From NCBI GenBank assembly GCA_003313425.1, contig NHZP01000079.1, forward strand, positions 1-64,000: DNA of 64,000 bases, in the 5' to 3' direction. How positions within the stretch are numbered: the stretch's first letter is position 1; the number at the start of each line of letters is the position of its first letter. The translations under genes and the position numbers were made by a program. The notes under the pieces were generated by a model. It had not been told where the DNA came from and did not search any database. It worked only from the letters and a program-made list of their open reading frames with translations. Below, in pieces: positions 13,725 through 39,045 of the stretch. The stretch is from Pseudopyrenochaeta lycopersici (Eukaryota; Ascomycota; Dothideomycetes; Pleosporales; Pseudopyrenochaetaceae).

Positions 13725-13726
13725 TA

Positions 13727-18260: not shown

Positions 18261-18292
18261 GAGAGAGAGAAGAGAGAAGAGAGAAGAGAGAG
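18261..18292. repeat. Purine microsatellite (AGAGAGA/AGAAGAG units)
   Basis: A 32-bp pure A/G tract with three copies of the 7-mer AGAAGAG after a (GA)5 start. It lies about 200 bp upstream of the methyltransferase pseudogene. Confidence 0.85.
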
Positions 18293-18499
18293 TATCTGCT
18301 TCATTCTCGTTTCTAGCCTCTAAGCATTAGTACAGTTTTGACCCCATGGACCGGTGGCCAAATCAGCTACTGTGCAATACACGAACTAGGCTAGGCACAC
18401 TAACGAGACTCGTCCAGCATATCTGAACATAAGGCGTTAAAAGTCATTGCAAATTTCGGGGGGTTCCACATCGAAGCAGCACTCGCCCAAGGCGGTATC

Positions 18500-20175
18500 A
18501 TGAAAGCTGAACAGCAGTCCGCCCTTCTCGAGCTGGCGACGGAGGTTCAGCCAGCTGACAACTCAGATTGTCAAAGATCTGACTGCGAAGAATCTACGGG
18601 AGCCAACATTTGAAGTAGACTCCGAAACAGTGCTGGAAACTCCGGAGCAGATTGCGCTCCGCGCACGGCTGAATGATGCCGCTCGAGATCTACTACGCCT
18701 CGTGAATGGCCCCAGAAACGATGCGCGGACCTTCGTATGCTACTTGTACGATCTGGCAGCCTGGCAAGTAGCTTGTGAATTCAACTTCTTTGAAGCAATT
18801 CCCGAAGATAGAGTCGCTAATATCAAGAGATTGCGGAGAAAGTTGGAATGGACGAAGATCGTGTTGGTCGCTTCTTGCGCATGCTAGCTACGGACGGAGT
18901 TTTTGAGGAAGTGGAAAAGGATGTGTTCAAACATACGTCCCGAAGTGTTCTTTACCTGAAAGACAAGCAGTGGCGGGATGTATGTACTATCAGCGCGATT
19001 ATTCTGCTCGACGTTGGTAGAATTACGATGCTAATACAGCCTATAGGTTGGATGAATTCTTCAGAGCAGCAACTGAGACTTCCGCAAGTATCCAGGAATC
19101 AACCTTCGTGAGCAATGGGCAGAAGAAAGCTTTTGTAATGAGGCACGGAACGGATTTGTTTCAATTCTACAAGCAAGACCCACAACGAGCAGGTCGCTTT
19201 GCGAGCGCGATGGCTGGAGTCTCCAGACGCACTACTCTCCTTCTCCAACTTGCAGGTTACTGTGCTAACTTCCTTGTAGTTGAGCGCCATTTTGAAACTC
19301 TCAAGGAGAGCCTCTCTTAGGATCAAATCAGCAGAGGCAAAATCATCGCTGTCGGTGGTAGAAGTGGCCACATGAGTGTCTCGCTCGCCCGGAGTAAGTT
19401 TGAAACAAATCCAATGCTCTACAACAAGCTCACTTACAGCTGCTCGAGGCCTTCCCAAATCTTGAACTCATTGTCTAGGATTCTCTGACCATGCTGTCAT
19501 CGGCTATCCAGAACGACTTCTCAGATCTCAATGGTCGAGTTACGTTCATGCCGCATGACTTCTTCGCTACTCAACCCGTCTCAGGCGCACCAACATATCT
19601 TTTGAGATACGTAACCCATAATTGGAACGACGTGGACTGTATCCGTATCTCCAGGGCGCTCCTTCCTGCCTTGGAGAAAAGCACTCCTGGGACACCACTC
19701 TTGATCAACGATGTTGTACCGCCAACACTGGGAGAGGCCTCAATTTTCCACGACAATCACATGTGCCAGGTTGACATCATGATGATGCTGGTCCTCGGGG
19801 CTAAACAGAGAACAGAAGAATAGTTCCGGCATTTGCTCTCGGATGCAGGTTCACGATTCAAGGTTAGCAAAGTTAAACTGATGTTGCTCTGAGACCATTC
19901 GCTAATGTCTCTTCCAGATCAAAGCTATTCACGGAAAGGGCAACATGAGCCAGATCGAGGCACATCTGGATATTGATGCAGCTCGCCATACGGAAGGCTT
20001 AGCTGTTGCCGAAGTCTCCAAAGATGCGTGTCAGCAGATGACCAGGAGCAGGATGCATCCACTGTTGCCAACCAGCAGAAGCGGACTGGAACCCGTCTCT
20101 GGTCTACTGGAGCGCCACATCACTGGGCTGCATGATGACCTGTGGAGTTCACTCTTGCCATCTCATTCAATGTAG
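18500..20175 (+). pseudogene. O-methyltransferase (family 2 type) pseudogene of the PKS locus
   Basis: Pieces in changing frames line up with fungal SAM-dependent O-methyltransferases (PF00891). Near 18560-18830 is the dimerisation/winged-helix N-terminus (LETPEQIALRARLNDAARDLL). Then come MDEDRVGRFLRMLATDGVFEE, a probable intron at 18984-19039, MRHGTDLFQFYKQDPQRAGRF, and the SAM site read as IIAVGGRSGH where VDVGG..GH is usual (Asp to Ala). After VTFMPHDFF come YLLRYVTHNWND and GKGNMSQIEAHLD, past an intron at 19863-19917. In-frame TAGs at 19318, 19476 and 19821 are each one C:G-to-T:A change from Trp or Gln. Frame breaks lie near 18555 and 18833. Such enzymes methylate hydroxyls of polyketides. 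It sits 1.3 kb upstream of the PKS on the same strand. Confidence 0.8.
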
Positions 20176-21497
20176 CATACCCAGCATTGTATGCGAAACA
20201 TGCATTGTATTGAGTAAGTGTAAACCACGTCTCTTTTGGTGTATGTGCGTCCAGCCCGACTGGGCGCCGATCCAATCACGGGTGTGGTAAGTTAGCGCAT
20301 CTGCCAGATACGCGCACCATCGGTATATGTCAGCCTGCAAAGCGACCCCACCTCAACTCCTTCGCTTCTGGTACTGCATGCATCAACCCCCGCGTCCTCC
20401 AGCTTCACATATAGGCAGCAGACGATAGCGAGTCTTTCACAATCGCCCAGGTTTACAAAGCAGGAACAAAGAACGCCGAGCAGCTTCAACCCTGATGACA
20501 GACAATCGCCTTCTTGATCCATGGTCCGTCTCAGGGTCCACTACATATTGGTTTTACCCTGGCGAACCTACAATGTAACGATCATCTGGTCTACCTAGTC
20601 CCTATGCTGGCCATACCTGCACCATCTCCCGGCCGTTATGTTGCAAGAGTCATGCATATACCTACATACTCACCGCCGGTTTGCAGCTCCGGAGCGGGAC
20701 GCGCCTGCCGCGCTGCGTTCATTACTTGGGCGAAGGCGGAGGAAAGTTCCGTAATGACGCCCATAGGCGAACGTCCCGAGCTTATCCTCACAACACTAAA
20801 GTTGATAACTCTACAAAGAATCCGCAACAGCAGCCAACTAAGGCCCACCACGTATCAACAGACCTAGCTGCGGCCTGTCTCCCGGTCTAACCAGAAGCAA
20901 TATTGCATCGGAGGAGCCGTTACGCATGCATATCAGAAGTGAAACTGATGAACTGTTGGTCTCTAACTGGGATAGGCTAACTCTCCACGCATAGCCTTCT
21001 TGCGTCTTTGGCAACAAATCAACATTCATTCGTATCTGCAGAATTAAACAGCGCAACAGTACCAAGCAGCCAATGCCTAGGCTCAGTTGCATGTAAGTCG
21101 ATCGCCCCGCAACGTCCTTGACGCGCGTGGAAAAGATACAGACTGCCATGAATGCTTGAATATAATGCAGAGGTGCGTACCACTGACAATTGTCTCGGCC
21201 TCACCGCACTGCTTGGAGAAACACCGTCGGCAATTGATTCCCACTATCCAGTGACAAACTAATTTCCTAGCTTTGTGTTGCAGACGCATTCCGCGTCTCA
21301 TAGGCGCGCGCACGAGAGCGCTCGATGGCTTCCTGCTAAGTCCATCCGTGACGACGGAGCAATAGCCTGTACTTTTCCGTACCTCCTAGCTATGTAAGTC
21401 ATGTTCGCAGCAATACTAATCTCGCACTGCAGTCCTTCGGGTCTTCAAGAAATCCGCGCAAAAAATAAGGTGCGACTCGTTCTATCATCCAGCGACA
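20176..21497. other. Spacer between OMT and PKS, unexplained coding-like pieces
   Basis: Probably the promoter side of the PKS. A minus-strand stretch at about 20840-21150 is hydrophobic and open but matches nothing I recognise. No bidirectional regulatory motif is evident. Confidence 0.35.
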
Positions 21498-24400
21498 ATG
21501 GCTTGCAAAGACCCCAAGCCAACGTCGATCGCAGTCATTGGCATTGGGTGCCGCTTTCTAGGCGATGTTACAAGCGGTGAGAAGCTGTGGGACATGTTGG
21601 TGGAGAAAAAGTCTGCAAGGAGCAGAGTGCCCTCGGACGGTTATAATGTTGATGCCTTCTATCACCCAGATGGGGACCGTTACGGAACGGTAAGTAACGT
21701 CATGGCGCCATCTCCCGCGCGGTTCCTTATTCATGAGTTGCAGGCTGACTGTTTCAGACCAACAACGATGGTGGCCACTTCCTTACTGAAGACATACCCC
21801 TGTTCGATGCGTCATTCTTTTCGATTTCGCCTGCAGAAGCCATGGCAATGGATCCAATGCAGCCGCTTCTGCTGGAGGTGACATACGAAGCGCTCGAGAA
21901 CTCCGAAACGCCACTATCCAGAGTGTCGGGATCCAAAACATCGTGTTTTGTCGTGTGTTTCACCAAGGATTACGAGGAGATGCAGCGGCGAGACATGGAG
22001 TTAGCGACGAAGTACCAATCTACCGGCGCCTCACAGACCATGCTCTCCAATCGACTAAGTTACTTCTTCGATATGAAGGGCCCGAGCATTACACTGGACA
22101 CGGCCTGCAGCAGTGGACTCGTTGCTGTACACTTGGCCTGCCAGAGTCTGCGAACGGGTGAGAGCTCAATGGCTGTGGTTGGAGGCAGCAATCTCATCTT
22201 GAGTCCGGATATCCAGATTGAGGTGAGCGACATGCATTTCCTGAGCTCAGACTCAATATCGTACGCCTTTGATGAGCGTGCTAATGGCTCCGCGCGAGGA
22301 GAGGGCGTTGGTGCTGTCATATTAAAACCGTTAGATCTCGCATTGCGCCGATAACGATCCGATACGAGCCGTCATCCGCGGAACAGCTGCTAGCTCGGAC
22401 GGACGGACACTGGGCATCACGATGCCTTCGAAAGACGCACAGATCCATCTCATACGTTCTGCATATAAAGCTGCGGGTTGTGATGTAAGCCAGACAGGAT
22501 ACTTCGAGGCACATGGTACAGGCACTGCTACAGGTGATCCGATCGAAACCGGCGCGATTGGCGAGGTGTTCGCGGCACATCGTTCCCTTGCAGCAGACGG
22601 TGCGGCGATCCCTCTTTCAATTAGATCGTTAAAGGCAAACGTGGGTCACTTAGGAGGGGCGAGTAGAATTGCTGGCTTAATCAAAGCTGTTCTCAGAGTA
22701 GAGAAAGGCACAATTGCACCGAACATCTGGTTTCAACGAGGTAACCCCGCCATCGATTTCGAAGGATGGCGGCTACAAGTCCCCACTGAGACGAAGGATT
22801 GGCCTTTGGAAGGCTTGCGACGCGCAAGCGTCAATTCTTTTGGTTACGGAGGGACAAATGCTCACGTCATTGTTGATGATGCGTACCACTACCTCCAGCA
22901 ATACCGTCGTTCTGGTGGGCACATCAGGAATGACTCGGGCTTCGTCAGTCCTGCCAGCGAAATGACATTCAGTGCCACTCCACGATCACGCTTGTTTCTG
23001 CTCTCTGCCAATAACGAGCGTGGTCTGGCTTATATGAGGAAATCGCTTGCCGACCACCTCCAAACACAATCCGACTTCGATGAGGAAGGCTTATTGGACA
23101 GCCTCGCTTATACCCTTTGTGAATGCCGCTCACGGTTTTCTTACAGTGCAACAATCGTCACAAAAGACAAACTAGATCTGGAAGGGCGACTGCAAAGTCC
23201 TGTCCCAGTTTCCAGCAGTCGCGCAACACCGCCACGAATAGGTTTCATATTCACTGGTCAAGGTGCCCAATGGTGGGGTATGGGCAGGGAGCTGCTCCAT
23301 TACCCAATATTCAAGAACAGCCTACTGAGATGCGATACGATTACGAAAAGTCTGGGCGCTGACTGGTCTCTGATGGAAGAGCTTCTCAGGGATAAAACCA
23401 CGTCACGAGTCAGCGAAGCAGAATTCAGCCAGCCGCTCTGTACCGCACTCCAGATTGCTCTCATAGATCTGCTCTCCGCATGGAACGTACACTCCCACTC
23501 CGTTATCGGCCATTCGAGTGGTGAAATCACCGCTGCCTATGCCACAGGCGCGTTGAGTTTTGAGTCAGCAATGACTGTTGCGTTCTTTCGTGGCTTATTA
23601 ACACCAAAAGTGAAGCGCTTTGGGTACGACGGCCGTATGATGGCTGTCGGCCTTTCTGAAGAAGAAGCAAACAACGAACTCGCTGAGCTGGACGACAAGT
23701 TTGGAAAAGCTGTCGTCGCTTGCATTAACAGTCCTCGTGGCGTAACAGTTTCTGGTGATACTAAAGCTATGGTGGAACTCCACAAGGCCATAGTTGCCAA
23801 AGGTGTCTTTGCGAGGATGCTTCAAGTAGATACTGCGTATCACTCGCATCATATGCAGGCAATCGCTAAAGAATATCTTGCGCGGCTCCAAGAGGCACGC
23901 GTTGTACCACAATATGGCGAGCAACAGGCGACAATGTTCTCTTCAGTCACAGAAGACGTTGTCGACCAGCGCCAGCTAGGCGCCGAATACTGGGTATCGA
24001 ACCTTGTTGGCTGCGTACGCTTCTCTGGTGCGTTAGAAAAGCTCTGCTCAATGCCGTCGGTAGATGAGAGTTACGGAGTAGAAGTAATACTGGAAGTTGG
24101 AACCCATGCCCTATTCAAACTCCCCGTCCGAGAGATTCTCGAAAACACATTCAGAGAAAAGTCGCACATCCAATACCTCTCCACACTCATCCGCAACAAA
24201 CCTGCCGATGCCACTGTGCTGGAAGCAGTTGGCCACCTGTGCGCCAACAACTACCCAGTCAACCTTCACGCAGTCAATTTCCCAAGTGAGCCGAAACAGT
24301 CTCTATGCGTCCTGACAGACCTTCCTCGGTATCCTTGGAACCACACTCGCAGCTACTGTTGCGAGTCCCGACTCAGCCGTGATTACCGTCTTCGGCAATT

Positions 24401-26589
24401 CGCTAGAACTGACATTCTTGGTGCACCAGTCTATGACTGGAACCCGATCGAACCTCGCTTCAGGAATTTCCTGCGACCTCGAGAGCAGCCCTGGCTTAGA
24501 GACCATGTCGTTCAGGGCGACGTCTTATTTCCAGCTTGCGGCTACCTCTGTATGGCAATAGAAGCTTGCAGACAGATGTGCATTATTGCACCATCGACAT
24601 TCTTACCCCAAGGATCTAAGAACGTATTGGAGTACAGGCTACGAGAGGTCAGTATCTCTAGAGCACTAGTCGTCCCCGAATCCGACGAAGGTGTCAAAAT
24701 CTCATTCTGCATGCGTTGCCAATCGAGCAGCGGCACTGCCCTATCAGACGTATGGCACGAGTTTCGTGTCTTCTCGTATCCCAACGATGGAGGATGGGTT
24801 GAGAATTGTCGGGGTCTTGTTTCCGTGTCGACCCAAGCGACTGGCGACGATGTTGACGCAGACATGCCTGAGTGAATGGACAGAAGCGCGTGCAGACGGC
24901 ACGCAAAAAATTGAGCCGAATTGCTTCTACAAGAGCGTTGACGCCATTGGTCTCTCGTATGTACCGTTATTCCAAGGCCTCCAAAGCATAACCATCGATC
25001 CTCATGTTCCCGCTCAAGTTGCTGGGGCCATCGAAGTGACCCACACGCGGATCGCCAATCCGAAAGAGTTTGAGCATGATCGATTATTACATCCTGCTAC
25101 TCTAGGTAGCTTTCTTCAGCTCGCACTTGCAGCCCTTGGGGGTCCCAAACTTCGTAAACTGAAGGGTGCAATGGTGCCCACATTCATGGAAGAAATATCG
25201 ATTTCTGCAGATATCGCCGCCCAAATCGGCGACCAACTCAACGTTGTAGTCAGCGCCCAGCGACATGGATCAAGAGAAGCGAAAGCCAACATCTTCGCCC
25301 TGGATCCATCCACTTCGAAGCCAGTGGTGCTCATGGATGGGTTCAAGTTTGTTGCTATCAATGGTGCCAATGAGCCTATCGAGGTGCAGTCATTGGCAAA
25401 GCACTGCTACAAGCCGATCTGGGAGCCTGATGGGACCCATTGACCGCCAAAACCTGGACCGGGAGCTACAAGCGGCACCACGACCAGATGATCGACCGAA
25501 GACTGTCAGGCAACTGGAGTTGCTGTCGTACTACTTCATCGATAAAGCCCTTCGCGAAGTCAACGACGATGACGTATCTACCATGCTTCCTCACAATCAA
25601 AAGTTCTATCGGAACCTGTGCGAGCTGCGAGACGCTGTGTTAGCGAAGACACATCCACAGCAAACAGATGAGTGGCACCAGCTTCACAACCCCGAGACTG
25701 CCACTAAACTTCAGGCCCTTGTGGAGTACTATCGAAATCATCAGACGGCGTATGATGGCAGGCTTCTAGTACGAGTAGGGGAGGCCCTACATTCAGTATT
25801 CAGACAAGAGGTCGAACCTCTCGCGTTGATGATGCAGGAGAATCTGCTGAAAGACTGCTACACCACCGCCTTCGGAATGCCCAATACATATGCGCAGATA
25901 TCCCGATACGTCACCATGCTTTCCCATAAGTATCCCAACCTAGACTATCTCGAGATCGGCGCTGGTACGGGTGGTGCGACGGTTCCGACGCTTCAAGGGC
26001 TGAAGGGCTGTGAAGATGTCCACACGTACCCGCGACTGAAGTCGTACACATACACCGACATTTCATCCTACTTCTTCCAACGCGCCGCAGAGAAGTTTGA
26101 GGACTTCTCGCAGTTCATGAACTTTAAGAAGCTCGATGTTGAGCAAGATCCTGAAACACAGGACTTCAAGCCTGCGTCCTACGATGTTATCGTTGCAGCC
26201 AACGTACTCCACGCCACATCCGACATGCATCGCACGATGGCACATGCACGGCAGCTTTTACGGCCAGGAGGCAAACTCATCCTTCTTGAAATGACCAATC
26301 GCCTTCTTGCAGCCTCAGTCATCTTTGGCACACTACCAGGCTGGTGGAACGCATCGGAAGAGTGGCGGACTGATGGCCCGCTGCTCACTGAGACTCAGTG
26401 GGAAGATGTGCTGCGCTCTACTGGTTTCGGTAGTCTTCAAGCAAGTAGCCCGGATGTACTGGACCCGCTGGAGGAGGGTACAAGGCTCATGATAGCCACG
26501 GCCGTCGAAACCAGGTCAACTCTCTGCAATGGCTTGCCCAGGCCGCCAGAGAACCCTCTCATTACCATCCTGTGCTCCGACTTTCCGAT

Positions 26590-29500
26590 CAGAGATGTCA
26601 ACAATCAAGCCGATCAAGCCCTCGTCGTCGGCTTGGCTTGAGGCTTGATTTGGAGTCGTTAGGCTTGACTTGTTTGACTTGATTGCTTAGATAAGGCTGG
26701 CTTGGCTTGAAGCTTAATCGGTGGCTTGATTGTTTATTGTTGTAGAGATCGCTCGGCTATACTAATTACTCGACCTCCTGGCCCCAATAGCACAACTTGT
26801 ATATAGCGTCTATTTCAGTGTCAGTTATTCTTGCTGTAGCAACGCTGCTGCCTTGATCAAAGCCAGCCTTATACCACCGCCTTATACACTGAATAGCAGC
26901 CAGTAACTGGGGTGAGATCTTCCGCCTTCGGGGCTCAAGCAGGTCGCCAAGCTCGCTGAACATACGCTCACACTCGCAGCTTGACGCTGGGATAGAGATG
27001 ACGTCGATAGCCATCTTAGAGAGATTAGGGTAGCGATCGCGCAAGCTTACCCAGTATTTAATTGGGAAGTTTGCGGCATCACTACCCTTCTCAACCCTTA
27101 GCTCGCACCTCTTCCACCTATTAAACTCGTCTATCTCGCTGTCCTCAGCAGCCGCGCTAGCCTCAGGATCGATGAGGGCTTCAATAGCCTCGTCGATATC
27201 GTTGGTAACAACCTTTGGCCGCCTCACTAGGCGTGGTGAGCGGTTGTATTCAGCCCAAAGCGCGCGGAACGCGCAATTATTAGCGTCCAGCCACTCAGGC
27301 TTGTCAGCCCAGGCAACGTCGCAGTAAGTTTTATAGCGCGGATGGAGTATCGTTGCCGCGTAGTACGCTGGTGAGAGGTCGAGTTTATTGTAGTAATCGC
27401 TAGCCTTCGCCCAGGCAGCGCGAAGGTTGATCGCGAGATGGTCCTCAGGCGCGTCGTCGTGCGCATTATAGTCGACTGCCTCGTACACCTTGACGCGCTG
27501 CTCGTAGTAAGTAAGTATAAACTCAAAGACTGGGATGACCTCAGCAATAGCGCCATAACGGCCACTTTTGCCGCGACCTTCAAGCCGCTTTGTTGCCAAC
27601 TTTAGCGGCTTTAGTACGTCTATGTACTCAGTAACGACCGCCCAATCGGCGGCTGTTAGCCCGTCCGATCGCATCCAGGGCGCTGCCTCCGGCAGCTTGT
27701 TGCCGCGACTTATCGCGTACGTGTCCTCATCTCGCACGCGGCGTATATGGTGGTTAGCGTAGGCGTTAACTGCTGGCTGCAGTTCCACGGCGCGCTCAAA
27801 GGCAGAGTAGTACGAGTTCCAGCGCGTGACAACTGGCTTAATTGGCTCAAGTATCCTGTGTTGATCTGTGGGCAGCTCAGCGTTAGCGAGGCGCTGAAAG
27901 TTTTTAAAAAGCTCATGTTGTTGCGGCGTTTTGATGTAGTTAATAACGCTAAGAAGCACGCCTAAAGGCCCATCCTCGCGCCATTTGCGCATTAACTCGC
28001 TCTCAGCAGCAAGCTCACCGCTATCGTTGTCGTACGCGTCGTCGTTGTTACCCCAGAGTAGCGTCTGACCGATGAGGTTAAGGATGTGAGGGCCACAACG
28101 GAGGCGGCGATGGGGAGCGATGAAGCCCATCTGCTGCGCGAGCTTGAGGACGGCAGCGTCGTTGTTAGTAGCGTTGTCAAGCATAAAGTAGCCAACTGTA
28201 CGCGGATTTATGCCGAACTGCTGCAGCGTTTTGCTAACTACTTCAGCAATCTTCTCGCCAGTGTGAGCGCCCGTCAGCTGCGGCAGCGCGATAGGTACGT
28301 CTACAAGGTCACCAACGCTGTTAACGTAGTGAGCAACAACGCCTAAGAAGCCACGCTTGCCGCCTTTAGTCGTCCAGCTGTCAAAGCTGATGTGGACCTT
28401 GCTTATTGATTGCGACAGCTCAGCGACAACCTGCGGCTGCATAAAGTCGAAACGGCGCATTACAAAGCGTGAAACACTCGCATGGGAGGTCCACAATACC
28501 GCCACTGCCTCAGGATTTGCAGCTTCAAGCAGCCGTCGAAACGCGGGGGACTCAAACTCAGAAATTGGATGGTTGTTCTCGACGAGCCATGCGACAGCAG
28601 CATGTCGAAAATCCTGAATGCTAAAGCCGGCAAGCTCGTTGGCAACGTCTTGGGATACCTTGACTTTGCCGGCCTTGAAGACAGCGCGCAGCCCGCTCTT
28701 ACCTGCCTTCGTCGCAGCGTGCGCTTTGCCTGGAGCTGCGTAACGATGGCCGCGTTTATTCTGCTCTAAATGGCGCGCTGAGGTCGACGTCGATAGCGTT
28801 GTTTCGTATATGCCGCCGCCACCAGCGTCGATAATCTTGTGCTCATGACAATAGCGACAGACAAAGAAGGTGCGGTCTGGGTCCTTAATGAGCGCAACGC
28901 GAAAGCCGTAGAGGTATACCCAGCTCTTTTTCTGCCTCTGCGTAGCCAACGGCTTGCAGTATTGAGGTAAACGTGACCAATTAATCCCCTCGAAGTCGTC
29001 TGCAAAGCGCTCATCAAAGCCCTTACTACTATTATTATTATCTTCTAACGTAGCTACTGTTGCAGCCTTGCTGCCCTCAATAGACGTGACGATCGCAACG
29101 TTAGGCTGAGACTCGCGCAACTGCGACTCAAAGGTGGGTGGCTCGGTAGCCTGAGACGCGGCAGTCGTCAGTGCTTTGCGCGGCGATAGACGCTGAGATA
29201 GTTGCTGGGTCGTATTAACGTCGACAGGCTGGGACTCGATGCTACAAGCAGCGACCCTTAGGCGCTTGTTCGGGACAGCAGCGCTGTTACGGGGACGTTT
29301 AGGGGCTTTGTTAAGCGGCATAGCAACAATAGGGGCGTAAAAAACTACTAAGTAACTGTCTATATAGGCAAAGGCGACAGTATAGGTAGATGACGCGTAA
29401 GATGGACGCGTAAAGTAGCTTTAGGTAGGTAGCTGAGATGCTTACTAAGCTAACTATAACACCAGGAAAGTATCGCGAGATCGCTCGTACAGCAAACTTA

Positions 29501-29708
29501 GTAGCCTCATTGAAATCGAAGCTAAAACATGTTGCTGAACACTCCCGCAACACTAAAACATCAAGCCAATCAAGCTAACCAATCAAGCTTCGTATTAAGG
29601 CTTGATTTGATTGCAAAAATACTAGGACGAGGCTTGGATTGATCGAATTGACGATCGTCAAGCCAATCAATCAAGTGCTTGATTGTAGCTTGATTGTTGA
29701 CATCTCTG
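26590..29708. mobile_element. hAT transposon inserted in the PKS (family C)
   Basis: A 3,119-bp element with terminal inverted repeats CAGAGATGTCAACAATCAAG at 26590 and, inverted, ending at 29708. It is flanked by the perfect 8-bp target duplication TTTCCGAT (26582-26589 and 29709-29716). Both subterminal zones are packed with CAATCAAGC/GCTTGATTG motifs (26600-26740 and 29560-29700). It carries one intact transposase on the minus strand, opposite to the PKS. It is the cleanest recent insertion in the window. Confidence 0.97.
26766..29321 (-). CDS. hAT family transposase (intact, family C)
   Basis: An 851-residue open frame. The N-terminus is basic (KRPRNSAAVPNKRLR, a likely nuclear signal). 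A BED-type finger follows (FFVCRYCHEHK...ARHLEQNKRGH, about residues 150-195). The hAT core has SFDSWTTKGG and GYFMLDNATNNDAAVLK, then RLRCGPHILNL. The C-terminal dimerisation region carries YPNLSKMAIDVISIPASSCECERMFSELGD, whose Glu in CERMFS is the third acidic site. It is longer than the family B enzyme (775) and clearly a different family. No stops or frame breaks, although the PKS around it has several. Confidence 0.94.
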   Translation of the reverse strand: MPLNKAPKRPRNSAAVPNKRLRVAACSIESQPVDVNTTQQLSQRLSPRKALTTAASQATEPPTFESQLRESQPNVAIVTSIEGSKAATVATLEDNNNSSKGFDERFADDFEGINWSRLPQYCKPLATQRQKKSWVYLYGFRVALIKDPDRTFFVCRYCHEHKIIDAGGGGIYETTLSTSTSARHLEQNKRGHRYAAPGKAHAATKAGKSGLRAVFKAGKVKVSQDVANELAGFSIQDFRHAAVAWLVENNHPISEFESPAFRRLLEAANPEAVAVLWTSHASVSRFVMRRFDFMQPQVVAELSQSISKVHISFDSWTTKGGKRGFLGVVAHYVNSVGDLVDVPIALPQLTGAHTGEKIAEVVSKTLQQFGINPRTVGYFMLDNATNNDAAVLKLAQQMGFIAPHRRLRCGPHILNLIGQTLLWGNNDDAYDNDSGELAAESELMRKWREDGPLGVLLSVINYIKTPQQHELFKNFQRLANAELPTDQHRILEPIKPVVTRWNSYYSAFERAVELQPAVNAYANHHIRRVRDEDTYAISRGNKLPEAAPWMRSDGLTAADWAVVTEYIDVLKPLKLATKRLEGRGKSGRYGAIAEVIPVFEFILTYYEQRVKVYEAVDYNAHDDAPEDHLAINLRAAWAKASDYYNKLDLSPAYYAATILHPRYKTYCDVAWADKPEWLDANNCAFRALWAEYNRSPRLVRRPKVVTNDIDEAIEALIDPEASAAAEDSEIDEFNRWKRCELRVEKGSDAANFPIKYWVSLRDRYPNLSKMAIDVISIPASSCECERMFSELGDLLEPRRRKISPQLLAAIQCIRRWYKAGFDQGSSVATARITDTEIDAIYKLCYWGQEVE

Positions 29709-32526
29709 TTTCCGATCAAGGTAAACAGGCTAGACATGCCGTTGGCGCTTAAGGTCAGGATGGAAAGGGCAGGCCTTCAAGTATAGCTTGCGTCGCTATC
29801 TAGGCTGAAACAGCAAGATATAACCGGCACAATCTGCGTCAGCTTTGTTGAGCTTGATGAACCACTCTTCGCCAGCCCTTCGACTGACCAATTTAAGACC
29901 CTCCAACGCTTCGCTGACATATACACGGGCCTAATTTGGGTGACTCGTGGAGCAGCGTCTTCCAACCCCGAGCGCCATGAGCTTGCAATTTTCCAGGGGC
30001 TTGCTCGTACCTTGAGAGCAGGGCATGAAGCATTCTCTTGTATCACTGTCGATCTAGATGCGGAGAAGAAGTTACCTGCCAAGGGGGTCGCTGACCTTTT
30101 GTACCGCATATACGAAAAGCAATTGAGCCCAGGATCTTACTCTGTGTCTGATGACGGCGAATTCATTGAGAGAGGGGGCGTGCTTCATATCAAGCGCGCA
30201 GTTGAGGATGAGACGTCGAATAAGTTCGTTGCCAGACGCACCGATCCGTTATCGCTGCCACCACAGCTGGAGGATATCGTACAAAGAGATCGCCGGCTGA
30301 AGCTCAAAGTCTCCGACTCGGGCCTGAAGGGGCCTTTTGTCTTCGAAGACGATCCGATAGCGAAACGGCCGATGTTGCCTCAAGAAGTTGAGGTCGAAGT
30401 TCAAGCTGCCAATCTCGACTCAAAGGGCATCCAAATACTTAGTGGTGAACTTTCGAATCAAAACTTAGGCCAAGAGTGCGCGGGTGTTGTTACAAAGATT
30501 GGTAATACCATTTCAGGTCTCTCGGTGGGTGATCGTGTCACTGCCTGGTGCACCGGCACTTTCGCCGCGCATGTCCGCACTCCAGCAACTTTTGTGCACA
30601 GAATTCCCGATGATGCGAGCTTTGAGGCCGCCGCGACATTCCAGTAGCTTATTCTACTGCCTTTCATGCCTTGGTACACACAGCGTGCATAGGGGCTGAT
30701 GATACAGTCCTCGTTCACGAAGCTGCAGCTCCTGTCGGTCAAGCTGCCCTTCTGATCGCCTCGATGCTTGGAGCAGTTATCTTCGTGACTGTCAATTCGG
30801 CCGAGGAGAAGACTCACCTCACAGAGTCATACGGCATTGATCCAAGCCGAATCTTCTCCAGTCAAGATCTGAAGTTTGTTGTTCCAGTCCGGCGAGCAAC
30901 AAAGGGCCGTGGTGTGGATGTTGCTTTGAATACGCTTTCAGGCGAAGCACTTCAGGCTACATTCAGCTGCGTCGCACCCTTCGGCAAATTTATTGATCTT
31001 GCAAAGGACAACTCACAGACCAATGCGCGGCTGGAAATGGCTCCATTCGACAAGAGTGTGTCATTCACGTCCGTCAACATGGCACACCTGCGTCAACAGA
31101 ATGTCAAACTTGCCGGCAGAATCTTCCAGGAGGCGATGAAGTTCGTTATGGACGAGAAGTTGCAAGCAGTTTCGCCGATCGACTTGAGGTCATGGTCAAA
31201 GTTGACTGAAGCAATCGAAATGGTGCAGAATGAGAAGTATACGAGCAGAGCGATCATGGTCCCGACCACAGGTGATCAGGTCTTAGTAAGCACCTCATAT
31301 TACCATTTCTTTCGAAATGGAAGGCTGACAGGTTTTTAGGTTGCACAGAAACCGCCCGAGAGCATCCTCTTTAACTCAGACGTATCCTACCTCCTCGCCG
31401 GCGGTCTCGGTGGTCTAGGGCGCAGCATATCTCGCTGGCTAACCACCCACGGTGCCAAAAACCTAACCTCCGTCTCCCGCTCTGGTGCTTCTTCCGCCGA
31501 AGCATCGTCTTTCATCTCCTCCCCCGAAGACTCCGGCATTCGCACCGCAGTTCTCCAGTGCGACATCTCCGATGCATTCGCCCTCTCATCCACTCTCTCA
31601 GACACCTTGAAGACCTTCCCACCTATCCGCGGCGTCATACAGGGCGCCATGACACTCAACGACTCGCTGTTCAGTAGCATGACGCATGAACAGTGGACAT
31701 CAACCATCTTCCCCAAAGTCCACGGTTCAAAGAACCTCCACGAAGCCACACTCTCCCAACCCTTGGATTTCTTCATCCTTGTCTCCTCTCTCCACTCCTT
31801 CATCCGCAATGCAGGACAATCAAACTACGCCGCGGGCTGTGCCTATCAAGTCGCACTGGCCAAGTATCGCAATAACCTAGGCTTGCCGGCCACGGCAATT
31901 GATCTAGGTATTGTCGGCGGCGTGGGATATGTGGTAGAGAAGAAGAGAGCGGAAAAAAGATCAAAGTGCAAGAGTTCAAACACATTAACGAAGCAGAGAT
32001 GCTAGCACTTATCGAATTGGGAATCCGACAGCCAATGACCGGCCATTTAGTTACGGGACTGGACTCTTATCTCGACATCGCAACGATGAAGGAAGGCAAT
32101 ATGCCGTTCTTCGCAAAGGATCCAGTACTAAGTCATCTCGAGTACCTTCGCCCGCATTTCAAGACCGAAACTACAGTGCAGTCTACAAACGACGGGGCAA
32201 CGCCAGCTTCCCTCTCGCTGGCCGCTCAACTCGCCTCCGCGCCGTCCACCGAGCAGGCGAAATATTATATCCAGACTGCCCTCATCAATAAGCTTTCTCG
32301 TAGCTTAATGACGGATTCGTCTGAGCTGGATGCTATTCGCTCGATGAGCGCGTATGGAACCGACTCGCTGGTCGCCGTCGAGATGAAGAACTGGATCCAG
32401 CGCGAGACCAAGGTGACAGTCAGTGTATTTGACATCTTGCAGGCGACGAGTATTGAAAGTTTAGTTGAGAGAATTGCTGAACGGGTTGGTGGCCAGAGCG
32501 AGCGAGAGCGAGGGCGAGGCCAGTAA

Positions 32527-32997
32527 AAGGAAAGTCAAAAATTGCAGAGGATGAAAAGGGATATAAAATTGCAACAACGAAGTGAGTGAAAGACCACATA
32601 ATCTGACAATAAATCTAGGGAAAGAATGAATGACTTTCTACTTTGCTTATTCTGGGAGGATGAAGCGTTCTAGCGTTGGAGCTTCTGGTGTTTATACCCT
32701 GTATTTCCTTTTCGATGTCTGAGGAATAGTATTTTCTATGTAATCAAGTTTACGAAAAAAACGAAGTTAATGTCAATCGCAGGAGGGGTATCATATGCCA
32801 TATTCCCAAAACGCCGTGAATGCAAATATGTCTTCGTCAATCGCTCGTTGTTCATCGTCCTTGTAAAGCCTGAGGATGGAAGTCAGTCAGAGTCGTACTC
32901 AACTAGCGCGGATATCAATGCTGGCTTTTTCGTTGGTATATCCCCTGCCGCTGCCTCTTCTGGCGGAAGCGCTTTGGTTGAGGGTGTTTCAAGCTCT
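32527..32997. other. 3' flank of the PKS
   Basis: A-rich downstream sequence with no recognisable gene. It probably holds the former PKS transcript end. Confidence 0.4.
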
Positions 32998-33294
32998 TTA
33001 TTCGGTTGGTCCTCCCTCTTTCACTTTAAAATTCCAAAACTGGGTTTCGGCATCGGGGGCCCTGGCTTCGCAAAAAAAAGGATCCATTACAACTTTTATG
33101 TTGCCAACCAGTGTTTTTTGTAGATTCTGTCGGCTCTTCTCTGCTGCGATTTCCGACTTCAGCTCCTTCGACTTCGGAGCAGTCTTGACAACCTCCTCGG
33201 TCTTCTTCTCGGCGAAGAGTGGCTTCCAGGATACATCCTCTAGCGCTCGATCGATGGCATTGCTCGTGCCAAGCTCGATCAGACCCGCACGCAT
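32998..33294 (-). CDS. Hypothetical charged protein (fragment)
   Basis: A 98-residue minus-strand frame. It has a Lys/Glu-rich central helix (KTAPKSKELKSEIAAEKSRQ, then NLQKTL) and ends in FWNFKVKEGGPTE. Composition is coding-like, but I do not recognise the family, there is no signal peptide, and the frame may be part of a longer spliced gene. It lies between the PKS end and a hAT remnant. Confidence 0.3.
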   Translation of the reverse strand: MRAGLIELGTSNAIDRALEDVSWKPLFAEKKTEEVVKTAPKSKELKSEIAAEKSRQNLQKTLVGNIKVVMDPFFCEARAPDAETQFWNFKVKEGGPTE

Positions 33295-33339
33295 TCGATC
33301 CGCGTCTGTCTCAACAATAGGGCAGTTCGAGAGGTTAGA

Positions 33340-34014
33340 AAATTATGGAAAGACCACTTCAAGCCACCTATAGAGCAGCGGCTTTACTCAAGATTCGCTA
33401 GAAACGCCATACGAGCGATGGAAGCGTGAGAGGTATTTAAATATAGATGTTGGTAGTACAATAGGTGATGACTTTGAGCGTTTTATCATAGTATGTTTGC
33501 TGAATGTTCTTTACAGTTAAGCTAATTAATTCTACAGGCTACTCCTGTCTCTATTGGTGAACAGTCTCCGCTTGAATATTGGCTTGAGCCAACGCAGCAG
33601 AAGACGTATCCTGAACTCAGTTTATTGGCCATCAACATACCATCTATACCCCCGATGTCCGCAGAGGTGGAGCGTATATTTAGTAGTTCTCGGCGTACGG
33701 TCTCATGGGATCGAACGAGGCTTTCAATCAAGACGCTAGAGATGCCGGAGTGCTTGAAGCATTGGGTCACGACTGGGCTTTCTTATGAGACTTTTCTGAC
33801 AGATGAAGCGGTTCAGAGGGCTATAGAGTCTACGGAACAGGAGTTTGCGTGCCTAGAGGATAAATTAGAGGGCAACAAGCCATAATACTACTGCTACACC
33901 GTACGTCATACATCACCGCTTCGAATTATTGAATCAAACTGAATCTGAGCCCTGATTCAATGAATCACCCTGAAGCAGGCTCTGCTTCAGGATCAGTCCG
34001 GTTCAATGCATCTG
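33340..34014 (+). mobile_element. 5'-truncated hAT remnant (family D)
   Basis: Only the end of a transposase is left. VRKLWKDHFKPPIEQRLYSRF is read around 33335-33410. A 47-nt intron lies at 33491-33537. Then 33538-33885 encodes the hAT dimerisation region with PLEYWLEPTQQKTYPELSLLAINIPSIPP and MSAEVERIFSSSRRTVS. Cys is replaced by Val in the CERVFS motif, but the Glu is kept. Downstream to about 34014 are repeated TGAATCA-like motifs (33930-33975) and a possible end in ...ATGCATCTG, resembling the subterminal repeats of the other hATs. The left end and catalytic core are missing. Confidence 0.7.
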
Positions 34015-34724
34015 TCAGATGTAAGGCCCGATAGGGTGTTAGATGTCACGTGTGGATCTCCAAGTTGCGAGATCCTAGATGGTAGCACAAACTCTCGGGT
34101 GTAACCACTTGGCGGAGGGACACACAAAAAGGCAGAAAATAGAGAACACACAATCAATCACGTTCATCATTAAAATTCATCAAAGATCAAGCCAAATAGT
34201 CCTTGAATCTGACAGCATCACTAACCACTGCCCTCATCGCCCATCTTAACAAAGGCCGTTCTAGAAGATGGCTAATCCGGTTGTTGCAAGGGATTTGCAA
34301 AATAGACAAAGGAGGGCGTAAACTTCCTGAACTGAGGCAGCTGATGTGCAAACGGTGCGCCACACCGCAGAGCTGTTAATGCTTAGTCGACGATGAGAAA
34401 TAAGTTGGCGTTTTCGCAGGCTCCGCATGCACTCTCCCACTCGTATGGTGTGAGCACATAGCCGCTTGCTTGCTAAACTATCTCTACAAGGACAGCAATG
34501 ATCCCTCTCTTCGCGAATTTCTAAAGCTTTTTCGTGAGTTAAGCTCTGTCTTGCATAAGGTCGAGAGACAGTAGCCCTGCTGGAGCCCCACATCGTGAAA
34601 TTTTATTGTTAGAACCTTCCAACGCCTGCGGAGGGTTAGTTGATTTCTAGCTGTGCTCAGGGAAGGCCATAAATACTAGTGGGCCATAGTATCCACCAAA
34701 CTGCCCTTGGAGTGCAGCAATCTG
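34015..34724. other. Gene-free spacer
   Basis: An open minus-strand frame (34261-34593) of unknown meaning is present. No recognisable motif, RNA or repeat. Confidence 0.35.
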
Positions 34725-34848
34725 CGGAGTTTCCTCGAGGATATCCAAATGGATATCCAAACAAGGGAGTTTGATTTGGCTGGATATATATGGATATCCA
34801 TTTTAGCTAACATGATGTCCAATTTGGCTATCCAAATTTAGAACTCTG
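34725..34848. repeat. Short imperfect inverted repeat, possible MITE relic
   Basis: About 124 bp with GGAGTTTCC at the left, the complement of AGAGTTCTAAATTTGG at the right, and several GGATATCC/GGATATATATGGATATCC palindromes between. The end GAACTCTG resembles a hAT terminus, but no 8-bp duplication is found on the flanks. Confidence 0.4.
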
Positions 34849-35072
34849 ATGGACAGTGACTTTCATCTGCTTGAATTAAACTCGTTTTACTATTTTGCCT
34901 GGAACTCTGCATATTCGTTCCCTCACGCGTTCTCAAGTGCAGTTACAGTACATCTATATGCATGGTGTCGTGGCAAATCGGAAGCTGGAGCCTTCCGTAT
35001 AGGAGACCAATTGTCTGTCGATACAGATCCATCCCAACCGTACCGTGCCAACTTGGCCATGTCCTTCATAGG

Positions 35073-35742
35073 TCATGTAGCCGTAGTCCTCTTGTCAGCA
35101 GCGGCCGAAACTCTTTCTGTCTCCTGAAAAGTCCCAAATCCGGCCTTGCGTTTGTGCTGATCGAGTAATTGTGCTATGGCGTCCAAAAACTCCATCTTTT
35201 CGTTCTCCAGGACAATTATCCTTTCCCTGACTTGAGAGAGCTCTTGTTCTGCTTCAGAGAGCCTTCCGCTCATCTCAGACACGAAGTTTGCGGGGAGGAT
35301 TCTGTAATTGGGGTCCTCCAGGCTCTTCAGCGACCTGGCAGGTAGAGCAGGGAGCAGGAGGACTTACTGTACGCCTGGGAACTTTGCTTCCTACCCTCTG
35401 ATGCTCGTCCTCCGAGTCATCCTCGATTGGAGACTTTGCACGTTTCATACCCCTAGGGTGCTTAAACATGCGGCTGTACGACGGGGAGGAGGCATTGCTC
35501 TTTGGTTTGGCCGACTTTGCGATTGCCTATATCCAAAAAATGTGAGGCTGCAGCTAACTGGAGTAATGGTCGCCACGTACCCGCCATGCTGCCATGGTAC
35601 CTTCTGAATCACTTTCCCGGACTGTAGATGTGCCCTGGTAGGGTCAGCGTGCTCTGTATTGTCCATGAACACGTACACTCGCGTTGTCAGTGTCGTCCAC
35701 AACCGTCGGTACGCCGCTCTTTGGAGGTTGCGAAGCGTGCAT
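35073..35742 (-). CDS. Coiled-coil hypothetical protein, multi-exon
   Basis: Minus-strand gene whose ATG at 35742 (MHASQPPKSGVPTVV) lies about 60 bp downstream of a TATA box. Exon-like pieces follow. About 35570-35702 contains HADPTRAHLQSGKVIQKVPW. A basic segment at 35330-35470 (MFKHPRGMKRAKSPIEDDSE) includes PCSTCQ. At 35073-35282 a long amphipathic coiled coil (SEAEQELSQVRERIIVLENE) ends the protein. Frame changes between pieces imply short introns that I could not place exactly. No known domain is recognised. The charged middle and coiled coil suggest a protein-interaction or nuclear role, which is inference. Confidence 0.45.
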
Positions 35743-35801
35743 CCTTGAGTAGTTCAAAAAAGTTGCTGAGAGGAAATGAGGATGCTGAGAGGTACGGGAC
35801 T

Positions 35802-35811
35802 CCTTTTATAG
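35802..35811 (-). promoter_or_regulatory. TATA box of the coiled-coil gene
   Basis: CTATAAAAGG on the minus strand, about 60 bp upstream of the ATG at 35742, a normal spacing in filamentous fungi. Confidence 0.5.
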
Positions 35812-36252
35812 CTTCTCTGCCACCCTGCCACCAAACCCAGTCCATGATAGGCTTCGGCGGCTTGGACGCTACGTAGTCCTGGTTCTTAGCGCCTCAGCGT
35901 TCGGGCATGCCTTCTCATGTCATTGAGACTGGGTCAGGCTAATGATCACGGTGTGACATGCCTGTCTCAGGCCGCGAATAGGCGCGGCAGAAGGCCTGGG
36001 CATGCCTTGCCAGGGTTGTGGGCACAGAGTCAGGGATGGTGGTGTCGGCCTTGCACATAGCAATTCTGGGTTCTCCCTGCTTCTTTGGTTACTCATCAGT
36101 GGCGTCCCCACGGCATCAGTCGTCAGACATCGCCATGTCCGGTGGCGGAGCATCAAGCCACCCGTTGCCGCTGTTGAATGGACCGATACCTCGCGGGATG
36201 TCACTCACACTAGAGTGGTGAGAGCGACCTTGAATACCTATTGCCATTCAAG

Positions 36253-36423
36253 TCAAAATAATATCTTTGAGAAACAGGCCTGTAGAGCGTCCACGTCTTC
36301 CAGATCTTCGTCAAACTCAAAGAGCAGATGCCCGCCAGGCGTATCGAATACAACAAGGATACCACACACATGGCCATACCCACCATAGCTCGGTCTCACA
36401 TATCGATCCACACCGCTAGGGCA
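36253..36423 (-). CDS. Coding-like exon, unknown protein
   Basis: A short minus-strand frame reads YVRPSYGGYGHVCGILVVF then LLFEFDEDLEDVDALQACF and ends at TGA 36253-36255. Its hydrophobic/acidic pattern and clean stop look like a final exon. The upstream part (36430-36500) is open in another frame, so either an intron or a frameshift separates them. The family is not recognised. It is divergent to the membrane-protein gene starting at 36578. Confidence 0.3.
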   Translation of the reverse strand, partial: CPSGVDRYVRPSYGGYGHVCGILVVFDTPGGHLLFEFDEDLEDVDALQACFSKILF

Positions 36424-39045
36424 TCTTGATCATGGCAGTGCATCGATGCCACTGCTTCATGCATGCGGTGTCCCAAAGGCCCATGAAGTGGGATGCTGGC
36501 GCACGGCGGCCTGTGCTGGCAGATATATAGAATGACAGATTTCTCTTCAAGGTGCCTTACTTACCTACTATCTCACCATGGGATACCTGCTTCTTGTCGG
36601 CTTCCTCGCTTGTTCTCTGTGCGGACTGCTCTTGAGTATATTTCTCGGCTGGCTTGATGCTAGAGCGCCCAACTCAGACCATACTCCGCGAACAGAGAGC
36701 TACCTGGAGCGGCCGTTGGTCTTCATCTTTGGAGTTGTACAAATAGTGGCATTTGGTGCTGCTATTGTCTCTGCAGCGATGGCACTCCTGACGGAACAGA
36801 AGGTTCGTTGCTTGGATGCAGTGCATTTCAGTACGCTCCAGCTTTACTCTGGAATCAATGTAAGATCGTTTTCCTCAAAACGTAAGCCTATTTGCCAACA
36901 GTACATCAGTGATGTAAATGGTCTGGACTGGACTGGATTTTGAGGTCGAATCCAGTCCAGTCCAGATAAACCAGCTGGATTTACTGGATTATCCAGACCA
37001 AACCAAGTAAATCCAAATCCAGGTAAAAATAAGTAGGGATGGTGGAGCTTTGGCATAATATTGAACGCTAGTTTACATCCTTAAAGAAAACCTCACCATC
37101 CTCATCCATACTAAGCCAATCCTCATCAGGTTCACTTAGCTCTTAATTATCATTAATTCGAATCTCATCCTCTGCCTCCTCCTGAGCCTCCTCCAGCACC
37201 TCTTTAGGTGGTTCTTAATCGGAATTCATCTCCGCAGATATACCATCATCCTTCTCGCTATATACAACATCTGTTCCCCCTAGACCTCTTATTTCCTTAC
37301 CAAGCTCCTGCTGAATATCTACATCCGTTGTCTCCTCCTTCGGGCGGCTATACTACCCTTTAAGGCACTCGTTAGCCTTAATAATATTAACAGAAAGTCG
37401 GTTACGGGTGTCAGAGATAAGGAGTTTGGCGCTACTAAATACGCGTTCGTATTCAGCCGACATTATTAGTATAGACAGCATATCGAGCGCAAATCAAGTA
37501 AGATTAGGTTGTGTGGTATAGCGGGCATTCCAGTACGCTAAGACGTCTTCTTTATCCTCTAGATCAGTATTAATGAAGGCCGTGTATCGATCTGAAGTGG
37601 CAGAGGCCTTTTACTTAACTTCTTCGTGAGCTTAAAGGCGACCAAAGTCGTTAGATTAACAAGGTTTCTGTAGCTTCTGTGGTTAGTTTTTATCACTTAA
37701 CAACTCCGCGGTGTTCTTCCCTTTATATTCGCTCTCCTAGAGTTCCCGAACGCCCTGAGTAATCTTACGATTAACCAGCCAATTCTTTTTCTCTTCATAA
37801 TCGTCCCATTGCTCATGAAACCAGAGCCACTTCTTTGCAGGCCGAAGGACGTGGGAGGCGTAATAAGCAGGAGATTCATCTACTAGATTGTAGTAGGTCT
37901 CTGCCTTTTCCCAAGCAGTAGCTGCTCCAGCTGCTAAAATATTGAATTCATCCCTCTCGGGGTGCTCTTAGACTTGCTCCTGAAAATATGCCTGAGCCCT
38001 ATACGTCTCTTATAGAACAAAGTCTAACGTTGTAAAATATTAGCAGAGTGTATTCTTTTATCCTTAGGTTAAAAGTGTGGCCTCATAGAACAGTTAGAGG
38101 CATGTATAAAGCTGTTTAAGGAGAAGCCAATGTTAAGCGTTAAGGCGATCTTTTTCGATACTAACGCCGCGTCTAGGTATATAGGTGGCACAGAAGCGTT
38201 TAATCCGTTGCTTGCAATTAAGGGCTCGGCCGATTGATACAAAAAAGGTGTTCTAACGTGTAGAGTTGGTTTGAATAAGCTATTAGTAGTTAGTGTTCCA
38301 CGGCTTCTAATTGGTTAGTTTGCTCTACAAAATCACTCACCTCCAAATTATTGAAGAGCGCCCACGTACCACCTATCCTACATCTTCTAAACTTAGAACA
38401 GCGCTGAGGCGTCATTCGAATATACCGAATAACGTTGTGGAGACGTCCTAGGGCGCCACGCCTTCTCTAAAACGCAGCAATCTTATCATAGTCCTTCCTT
38501 AAATATGCAAGTTCTAGCTCTTCTAAAGCTTTATCCGACTTTGTTCCTAAGAGGAAGGCCTAGGTAATAAGGTTAACAACGTGTCTAAGGCAACGGAGGC
38601 GACAACTCTTGCGCTGTTTCTTAGTTATGTTTAGATATAGCTTGCGTAAAATACAATTAACGCAGGTATCGTTTGAAGATGCGTTATTAAGCATAAAGTA
38701 GCCAATCTTCTTCCAAATTCTATATTCTTTAATCACCTTTAATACAATAGCCGCCTGGTTCTTACCAGAGTGCTCTCCTTTAACGCGACGGAGTGCTATC
38801 AGCTTAGTTTGCAAGGCGCCGTTTTAATCAACGTAGTGAGCGCAGATAGCAATAATTGCGTGGCAATTTGGTGACGTCCAAAGATCAAATAAGAGGTGGA
38901 TACTTGAACGGGCACAACGTAGCTCCTTCCGTAGGCTTTTCTTCTGTTTTAGGAACTCATTAATAACCTATTTTCGAATGGTATGTCGGCCAGGGATGAG
39001 CTTTGCAAGCTTACAATTAAGGTATGTAAGAAGCTCTAAAAAGTA

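What the first reader, a model, noticed from the sequence alone, without database searches (positions are those of the whole stretch)
26582..29716. Intact hAT element caught inside a PKS, with a perfect 8-bp duplication
TTTCCGAT flanks the element exactly, and the PKS frame is in register on both sides once the element and one duplicate are discounted. The transposase is open, while the PKS has five or more frameshifts elsewhere. Two orders of events are possible: the PKS was already dead and free to accept insertions, or the insertion killed it and decay followed. The clean state of the element against the worn state of the host argues for insertion into an already dead gene.
Basis: partly seen in the sequence, partly recalled or inferred. 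Interest (0 to 1): 0.75.

Follow-up and report, generated by a model that had tools for sequence, protein, structure and literature searches.

The report
Young transposon in long-dead duplicated PKS
A fungal genome carries roughly fifteen to twenty near-identical copies of a large DNA block holding a polyketide-making gene, most copies read here are broken, and an intact, recently moved hAT transposon sits in one that other copies show was already broken before it arrived.

Summary
In detail: a 3,119-bp hAT element (26590-29708) with perfect 21-bp inverted repeats, an open transposase and an exact 8-bp duplication interrupts a highly reducing PKS whose frame resumes in register. The PKS lies in a repeated block of about 40 kb or more, found on many contigs of the same genome (inferred: Pyrenochaeta lycopersici ER1518). 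Fifteen other block copies span the site without the element, 14 with exactly one 8-bp target. Five of the window copy's six disabling changes recur in at least one empty copy, so they predate the insertion. Ten of eleven copies compared are broken; one (C28) is open in every piece read. The element has no private substitution and equals two other copies; the window PKS copy has four in 6,617 columns. Two apparent PKS breaks are introns. The hAT family carries RIP scars and a scarred copy moved afterwards; the PKS copies show no RIP bias. The insertion is ordinary; the many-copy decaying PKS block is the interesting part, and what amplified it is unresolved.

The parts
26582..26589 (.). left copy of the 8-bp target site duplication TTTCCGAT
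   Evidence: single in 9 of 10 empty copies read by letters
26590..29708 (-). hAT DNA transposon, 3,119 bp, intact
   Evidence: 22 further copies read at both ends
26590..26610 (+). left terminal inverted repeat, 21 bp
   Evidence: 21/21 complementary to 29688-29708
29688..29708 (-). right terminal inverted repeat, 21 bp
26766..29321 (-). hAT transposase, 851 aa from first Met; D347, D415, E818 (numbered in the 884-aa frame) invariant in 14 of 14 aligned proteins and opposite D, D and E of Hermes
   Evidence: the Hermes stretch with the two D is weak, i-Evalue 0.16; the one with E is 2.5e-07
29709..29716 (.). right copy of the target site duplication
21498..32526 (+). highly reducing PKS copy (KS-AT-DH-MT-ER-KR-ACP), disrupted by the hAT, five small frame breaks and one nonsense codon; start taken at the first ATG read by eye
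21690..21757 (+). intron of the PKS (GTAAGT...TTTCAG), not a lesion
   Evidence: read by eye; no RNA evidence
31286..31339 (+). intron of the PKS (GTAAGC...CTGAC...TTTTTAG, 54 nt); its last three bases look like a stop
   Evidence: read by eye; also ends the frame in the C28 copy
9652..64000 (.). repeated block carrying the PKS, in many copies at about 95-100% identity; about 37.6 kb of it between 9652 and 60911 once four transposons of this copy are discounted; goes on past the window's right end; cut on the left by another element

Best explanation
A block of about 40 kb or more carrying a functional-looking highly reducing PKS was duplicated to many places in a RIP-capable pleosporalean fungus. 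Redundant PKS copies then decayed with little constraint through small indels, nonsense changes and insertions, each lineage keeping its own set; at least one copy (C28) stayed open. Late, in the copy that became contig C79, a hAT transposase made a staggered cut and inserted a 3,119-bp autonomous-looking element, leaving an 8-bp duplication. The insertion disabled nothing that still worked. Shown: element anatomy, empty sites, shared lesions, open C28 pieces, weak constraint between most decayed copies. Inferred: cut-and-paste chemistry, mobility today, the state of the ancestor, and how the block spread.
For: Fifteen block copies span the site without the element: exactly 8 bp between flank matches in 14, 9 bp in C129; of 10 read by letters 9 have exactly TTTCCGAT, so no excision scar. 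Five of six lesions recur in empty copies, and none of the six is common to all copies examined. The C28 copy is open through 939-2999 of L049, 1-4332 of L037, and 2-3124 then 3125-4294 of L046, including across the insertion point. Of 11 printed pairs without C28, 9 have dN/dS 0.78-1.25 (C79-C113 0.91, C79-C123 0.98, C113-C147 0.98); the ten with C28 give 0.60-0.83. The tree puts C79 inside a young clade with 4 private substitutions in 6,617 columns. The element has 0 private substitutions and shares all 7 departures from the family majority with L013 and L022, which lie elsewhere with their own duplications. Other copies took other insertions in the PKS: C78 (about 5.35 kb), C137 (1,210 bp), C147 and C129 (about 1,210 bp).
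Against: The genome is PacBio-only, and near-identical repeats can be mixed in assembly. C159 differs from the window only by 12 indel sites over 4,338 bp (0 substitutions), so small unitigs contain indel errors and partly duplicate one another. C149/C144 and C178/C78 may also be redundant pairs (0.3 and 0.2 differences per kb), which would lower the counts of independent empty copies. The copies are partly mosaic: left of the site C123 and C149 are equally near C79, right of it C149 is nearer. The nonsense codon is shared with C149/C144 but not with the tree sister C123, the 31.94-kb break the other way round, so gene conversion is likely and lesion order is not strictly tree-like. Two pairs have low dN/dS (C79-C78 0.20 on 13 changes; C79-C178 0.53 on 27), the ranges with and without C28 touch, pairs are not independent, and no significance was tested.
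Confidence: 0.93

Rival explanations
1. The hAT insertion killed a working PKS in this copy and the frame breaks followed.
For: The element lies in coding sequence and would itself inactivate the gene; one lesion (near 22.35 kb) was checked against only one empty copy, which lacks it.
Against: Five of six lesions recur in copies without the element or a scar of it; C79 has only 4 private substitutions in 6,617 columns, leaving little time for six later lesions.
Confidence: 0.04
2. The frame breaks are sequencing or assembly errors, and the window PKS was intact until the insertion.
For: PacBio-only assembly (PMC6034849 section 12); redundant unitig C159 shows indels without any substitution.
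Against: Three breaks recur at the same place in 5 or 6 of 8 or 9 other contigs and are absent from C28 and from one to three other copies each; the four breaks covered lie in homopolymers of 1-3 bases; dN/dS of 0.78-1.25 in 9 of 11 pairs does not depend on indels.
Confidence: 0.03
3. The block spreads as one giant cargo transposon (Starship-like), the PKS being cargo.
For: About 40 kb or more in many copies, one carrying an open PKS.
Against: No captain-type recombinase domain (DUF3435) among 33 window ORFs and 6 ORFs of two flanks scanned with Pfam, though introns could hide one; no common sharp end found: six left flanks continue together for about 1 kb, two right flanks part after about 200 bp, one of them near another transposase.
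Confidence: 0.2
4. The block is a segmental duplication spread by recombination between dispersed transposon copies.
For: hAT copies do recombine here: copy L023 has the right flank of L024 and the left flank of L027, each 100% over 400 bp; two opposed hAT copies at 60912-63575 and 64865-67528 flank an inverted 1.29-kb segment with exchanged target duplications; 6 of 20 fetched copies of the family lack matching duplications.
Against: No element was found at a common end of the block; the full length of the unit is unknown.
Confidence: 0.55

Closest known systems
hAT superfamily DNA transposons of Pleosporales (Dimer-Tnp-hAT proteins of Pyrenophora tritici-repentis, P. teres, Alternaria, Stemphylium)
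   Same: Same dimerisation domain; 45-78% identity to the 13 relatives aligned, with shared D, D, E, C and H residues.
   Different: The nearest protein, P0001, is an unnamed JGI record at 77%; a distinct family by identity, with no mechanistic difference seen. Ends of those relatives were not compared.
Hermes transposase (solved hAT)
   Same: C-terminal region aligns (whole-protein E=3e-12), with a weak stretch around the two D.
   Different: Distant; most of the protein does not align by sequence.
hAT transduplication of histone H3 in Dothideomycetes (PMC6710886, PMC3538342; found passages read)
   Same: hAT elements with 18-20-bp inverted repeats and 8-bp duplications in Dothideomycetes; one active gene among many inactivated copies; RIP-scarred element copies.
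   Different: Here the PKS lies outside the hAT repeats, is not carried by it, and decays without RIP bias.
PKS fragments annotated together with a hAT transposase in P. tritici-repentis (P0083, P0106)
   Same: PKS AT and ACP pieces and a hAT transposase in one gene model.
   Different: Database gene models only; no genomic context was available here.

Membership tests
hAT superfamily | 8-bp target site duplication | tested here: met
   window element, 14 of 20 fetched copies, 2 of 2 composites
hAT superfamily | short terminal inverted repeats (here starting CAG) | tested here: met
   21 bp, 100%
hAT superfamily | transposase with Dimer_Tnp_hAT | tested here: met
   E=3.7e-19
hAT superfamily | DDE catalytic triad with inserted domain | tested here: met
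   D347, D415, E818 invariant in 14 of 14 and opposite D, D, E of Hermes (the D stretch weak, i-Evalue 0.16); that these are the Hermes triad is recalled; the inserted domain was not tested by structure
hAT superfamily | BED-type zinc finger near the N-terminus | tested here: inconclusive
   C188, C191, H217, H225 invariant in 14 of 14 but no BED model hit
hAT transduplication (gene carried by the element) | host gene inside the terminal repeats | tested here: not met
   only the transposase found between the repeats; the PKS is outside
Highly reducing PKS | KS-AT-DH-MT-ER-KR-ACP order | tested here: met
   pieces scanned apart; C28 copy, open piece AT to ER
Starship giant transposon | DUF3435 captain tyrosine recombinase at one end | tested here: inconclusive
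   no hit among the ORFs scanned; block ends not reached and no genome-wide captain search run
RIP-affected repeat (hAT copies) | C-to-T changes biased to CpA | tested here: met
   hAT copies L011, L018, L019, L025, L026, L028: 38-248 changes at CpA each, against 23% CpA among C sites
RIP-affected repeat (PKS copies) | C-to-T changes biased to CpA | tested here: not met
   39 of 177 C/T or G/A sites in CpA context, against 495 of 1,754 C followed by A

The most novel reading that the evidence does not exclude
After RIP ceased to act, in a lineage reported to lack mating-type genes, a whole PKS-bearing block of about 40 kb or more spread to some fifteen to twenty places while hAT elements, some already RIP-scarred, kept moving. 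The genome would then hold a series of dead PKS copies of different age beside a surviving one: a natural record of how a secondary-metabolite block is amplified and worn down once the fungal repeat defence is off.
Probability: 0.3. Interest if true: 0.7.

Novelty: new member of a known kind. Interest (0 to 1): 0.45.

Why it matters
The insertion alone is ordinary. Its setting is useful: one genome offers empty sites, lesion sharing and an open sister copy, so the order 'dead first, hit later' can be read without other isolates. A PKS block in many copies with no RIP bias, beside RIP-scarred hAT copies, makes the timing of lost RIP (and perhaps lost sex) testable in this species.

Tried and rejected
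Rejected: the stop near 31.34 kb as a lesion (it is the 3' splice site of a 54-nt intron by its form, kept in 9 of 9 copies). Rejected: C159 as an independent second insertion (0 substitutions, only indels against the window over 4,338 bp). Set aside: placement next to telomeres. The telomere listing was cut short, but in C28, C54 and C62 the block lies about 170-310 kb from the contig's telomere repeats. Rejected: C52 as a RIP-mutated copy (73-80% identical, no CpA bias, a 1,030-aa open frame); it looks like a diverged paralogue. Tried without result: true ends of the block; Pfam scan of minor block ORFs. Literature (one search returned 0): listings only; no title or abstract start described a dispersed many-copy PKS block. 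The Colletotrichum higginsianum genome paper (PMC5576322, listing only) links transposons, segmental duplication and metabolite clusters and is the nearest seen. 'Polyketide' does not occur in the main text of either P. lycopersici genome paper. Notebook slip: the first checkpoint says 15 of 20 copies have perfect duplications; the count is 14 of 20.
Full report
What was claimed and what is there. The finding describes an intact hAT element inside a PKS with a perfect 8-bp duplication. TTTCCGAT is at 26582-26589 and 29709-29716. The element is 26590-29708, 3,119 bp, with 21 of 21 complementary terminal bases. On the minus strand a frame of 884 codons is open (26766-29420; 851 aa from the first Met) and matches Dimer_Tnp_hAT at E=3.7e-19. 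Hermes, the solved hAT transposase, matches at E=3e-12. D347, D415 and E818 are invariant in 14 of 14 aligned proteins and stand opposite D, D and E of Hermes, the first two in a weak stretch (i-Evalue 0.16); that these are the Hermes triad is recalled. By chance, 18 of 200,000 random draws of intervals of the same length in the window have identical 8-bp flanks.

The host gene. Open pieces on the plus strand from 21.4 to 32.5 kb give KS, AT, DH, MT, ER, KR and ACP in order. A homologous protein, P0127, runs through the insertion point with exactly four residues between the two aligned parts, which is what one 8-bp target plus four other bases encodes. The window copy has five small frame breaks (near 22.35, 24.85, 25.43, 30.64 and 31.94 kb) and a nonsense codon near 29.78 kb. 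Two other apparent interruptions have intron form: 21690-21757 and 31286-31339. The TAG that seems to stop the frame before KR is the end of the second one and is present in 9 of 9 copies covering it. No RNA evidence was available for either intron.

The genome. The window is the first 64 kb of contig C79 of a held genome with 188 contigs and 62,731,430 bases. A published PacBio assembly of the tomato pathogen Pyrenochaeta lycopersici, isolate ER1518, has 188 unitigs and 62,731,747 bp (PMC6034849; abstract, sections 12 and 16 and found passages read). I infer that this is the source. The longest PKS piece finds its nearest named relatives in Pyrenochaeta sp. MPI-SDFR-AT-0127.

The PKS is itself repeated. 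The piece left of the insertion matches, besides C79, eleven contigs in full at 97-100% (C159 not counted) and six more in part, and a diverged relative on C52 at 80%; the piece right of it gives a similar list. Probes along the window show that the repeat is a block reaching from 9652, where another element cuts it in C79, to 60911 and beyond. Of these 51.3 kb about 13.6 kb are four transposons of this copy that are missing from other copies compared, so about 37.6 kb are shared; other copies go on together for about 1 kb on the left and C41 and C79 for about 1.5 kb on the right. On C78 the matches run from 170334 to 215660, on C28 from 169422 to 211624. The probe from 9652 on finds 17 other full or nearly full matches and three split by an insertion, not counting C159 and C160; the probe at 49.0-53.4 kb finds 12 other full-length matches. 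Searches scored only their best candidates, so their counts are lower bounds; on the other hand small unitigs may duplicate one another. C159 is such a duplicate: no substitution and 12 indel sites against the window over 4,338 bp. C160 overlaps the left end of C79.

Empty sites. Fifteen copies other than C79/C159 have both flanks next to each other: C149, C144, C123, C178, C129, C113, C28, C54, C147, C137, C109, C78, C41, C42 and C25. The gap is 8 bp in 14 and 9 bp in C129. In 10 read by letters, 9 have exactly TTTCCGAT and C129 one extra base; C129 has about 30 other one-base indels, so that base is probably error. No excision scar is seen; these copies most likely never had the element.

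Order of events. Lesions of the window copy were looked up in the empty copies that cover them: near 24.85 kb shared by 6 of 8, 25.43 kb by 5 of 9, 30.64 kb by 6 of 9, 31.94 kb by 1 of 9, the nonsense codon by 2 of 10. The break near 22.35 kb was covered in C28 only, which lacks it. So at least five of six lesions are older than the insertion. Eleven copies were compared in part, C79 included. Ten carry at least one break: C79, C149, C144, C123, C178, C129, C78 and C113 by breaks of the list above, C54 by a frame break of its own, C147 by an insertion of 1,210 bp. The C28 copy, in a 753-kb contig, has none of the six and is open in all pieces read: L049 939-2999; L037 1-4332, 1,444 codons across the insertion point; L046 2-3124 to the intron, then 3125-4294. 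Its piece L037 reads from AT to ER. The PKS parts of C137, C109, C171, C41, C84, C42, C25, C37 and C62 were matched but not read.

Other insertions in PKS copies. C78 is interrupted by about 5.35 kb with a 9-bp overlap of the flank matches, C137 by 1,210 bp and C147 and C129 by about 1,210 bp at one shared place, each with an 8-bp overlap. The window copy is thus not alone in taking insertions.

Tempo. Of the 21 pairs printed, 11 are without C28: nine have dN/dS 0.78-1.25 (C79 with C149 0.78, C144 0.83, C123 0.98, C129 1.25, C113 0.91, C54 0.83, C147 0.90; C113 with C54 0.84, C147 0.98), two are low (C79-C178 0.53, C79-C78 0.20). Ten with C28 give 0.60-0.83. These are uncorrected counts on pairs that share history, without a test. 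The tree places C79 with C123 (95), then with C149/C144 and C178/C78; C113/C54 branch earlier and C28 is outermost; the C129/C147 pairing is weak (56). C79 has 4 private substitutions in 6,617 columns. The hAT has none among the 21 copies aligned: its 7 departures from the majority, all C-to-T or G-to-A, are shared with L013 and L022, which have other flanks and their own perfect duplications. L013 lies in the C36 copy of the same block, at the place equivalent to 57.7 kb. Left and right halves give slightly different nearest relatives, so some gene conversion between copies is likely.

RIP. Copies L011, L018, L019, L025, L026 and L028 of the element carry 55-417 changes, nearly all C-to-T or G-to-A and mostly at CpA; L021 carries 79 changes without that bias. 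L018 and L025 share 54 of them but not their flanks; L025 has a perfect duplication, L018 has not. So a scarred copy was moved or otherwise copied after being scarred. The PKS copies show no CpA excess: 39 of 177 C/T or G/A sites are in CpA context. The ER1518 paper reports RIP signs in the species and the earlier genome paper reports apparent lack of mating-type genes (PMC4234444, found passages). A RIP-free period after an older RIP-active one fits both, but dates are not available.

How the block spread. Two cases of recombination between hAT copies were found: L023, whose two flanks are those of two other insertions, and an inversion of 1.29 kb between opposed copies at 60912-63575 and 64865-67528, with the two target duplications exchanged. 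This makes transposon-mediated recombination my preferred route for the block, at 0.55. A giant cargo transposon stays possible; no captain domain was seen in the ORFs scanned but the ends of the block were not reached and a genome-wide search was not made.

Verdict. The hAT is a new member of a known kind and the insertion is ordinary. The repeated, decaying PKS block without RIP bias, with an open sister copy, is the part worth following.

Noticed in passing
window 60912-63575 and L062 (C79:64865-67528): Two opposed copies of a hAT-like element (96% alike) flank a 1.29-kb segment that is inverted relative to contig C41; their target duplications CAACCTGG and GTGACCCC are exchanged, the mark of recombination between them.
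   Followed up: yes
G000 C5:1780601-1792472 and C5:2106627-2118498 (L003-L006, L059): Two 11,872-bp copies of the same hAT swollen by nested inserts, alike at the ends (1 and 7 mismatches per 1,520 bases) but with different perfect 8-bp duplications: an element with an interrupted transposase frame seems to have moved as a unit; the middle was read in one copy only.
   Followed up: partly
L023, L024 (C70) and L027 (C160): hAT copy L023 joins the right flank of L024 to the left flank of L027, each identical over 400 bp: recombination between copies.
   Followed up: yes
window 36907-41933: A second hAT-like element, 5,027 bp, with duplication CAGTACAT and a nested 1.85-kb element; absent from block copies matched across the site, e.g. 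C149, C144, C72.
   Followed up: partly
window 54542-57380: A third hAT-like element, about 2.84 kb, duplication GTGGTGAT, absent from block copies matched across the site.
   Followed up: partly
window 11101-13724: Tc1/pogo-type element (DDE_1) between TA dinucleotides, absent from the C78 copy.
   Followed up: partly
window 6700-9651: Another hAT with a 777-codon open frame lies where the block is cut off on the left in C79; six other copies continue leftward together for about 1 kb.
   Followed up: partly
C137, C147, C129 (PKS copies): Insertions of about 1,210 bp with 8-bp overlaps at two different PKS places, possibly one short non-autonomous element; letters not studied.
   Followed up: no
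window 4085-5819: MULE-type transposase pieces with SWIM finger, outside the block.
   Followed up: no
protein records P0083 and P0106: P. tritici-repentis gene models that fuse PKS AT and ACP pieces to a hAT transposase.
   Followed up: no
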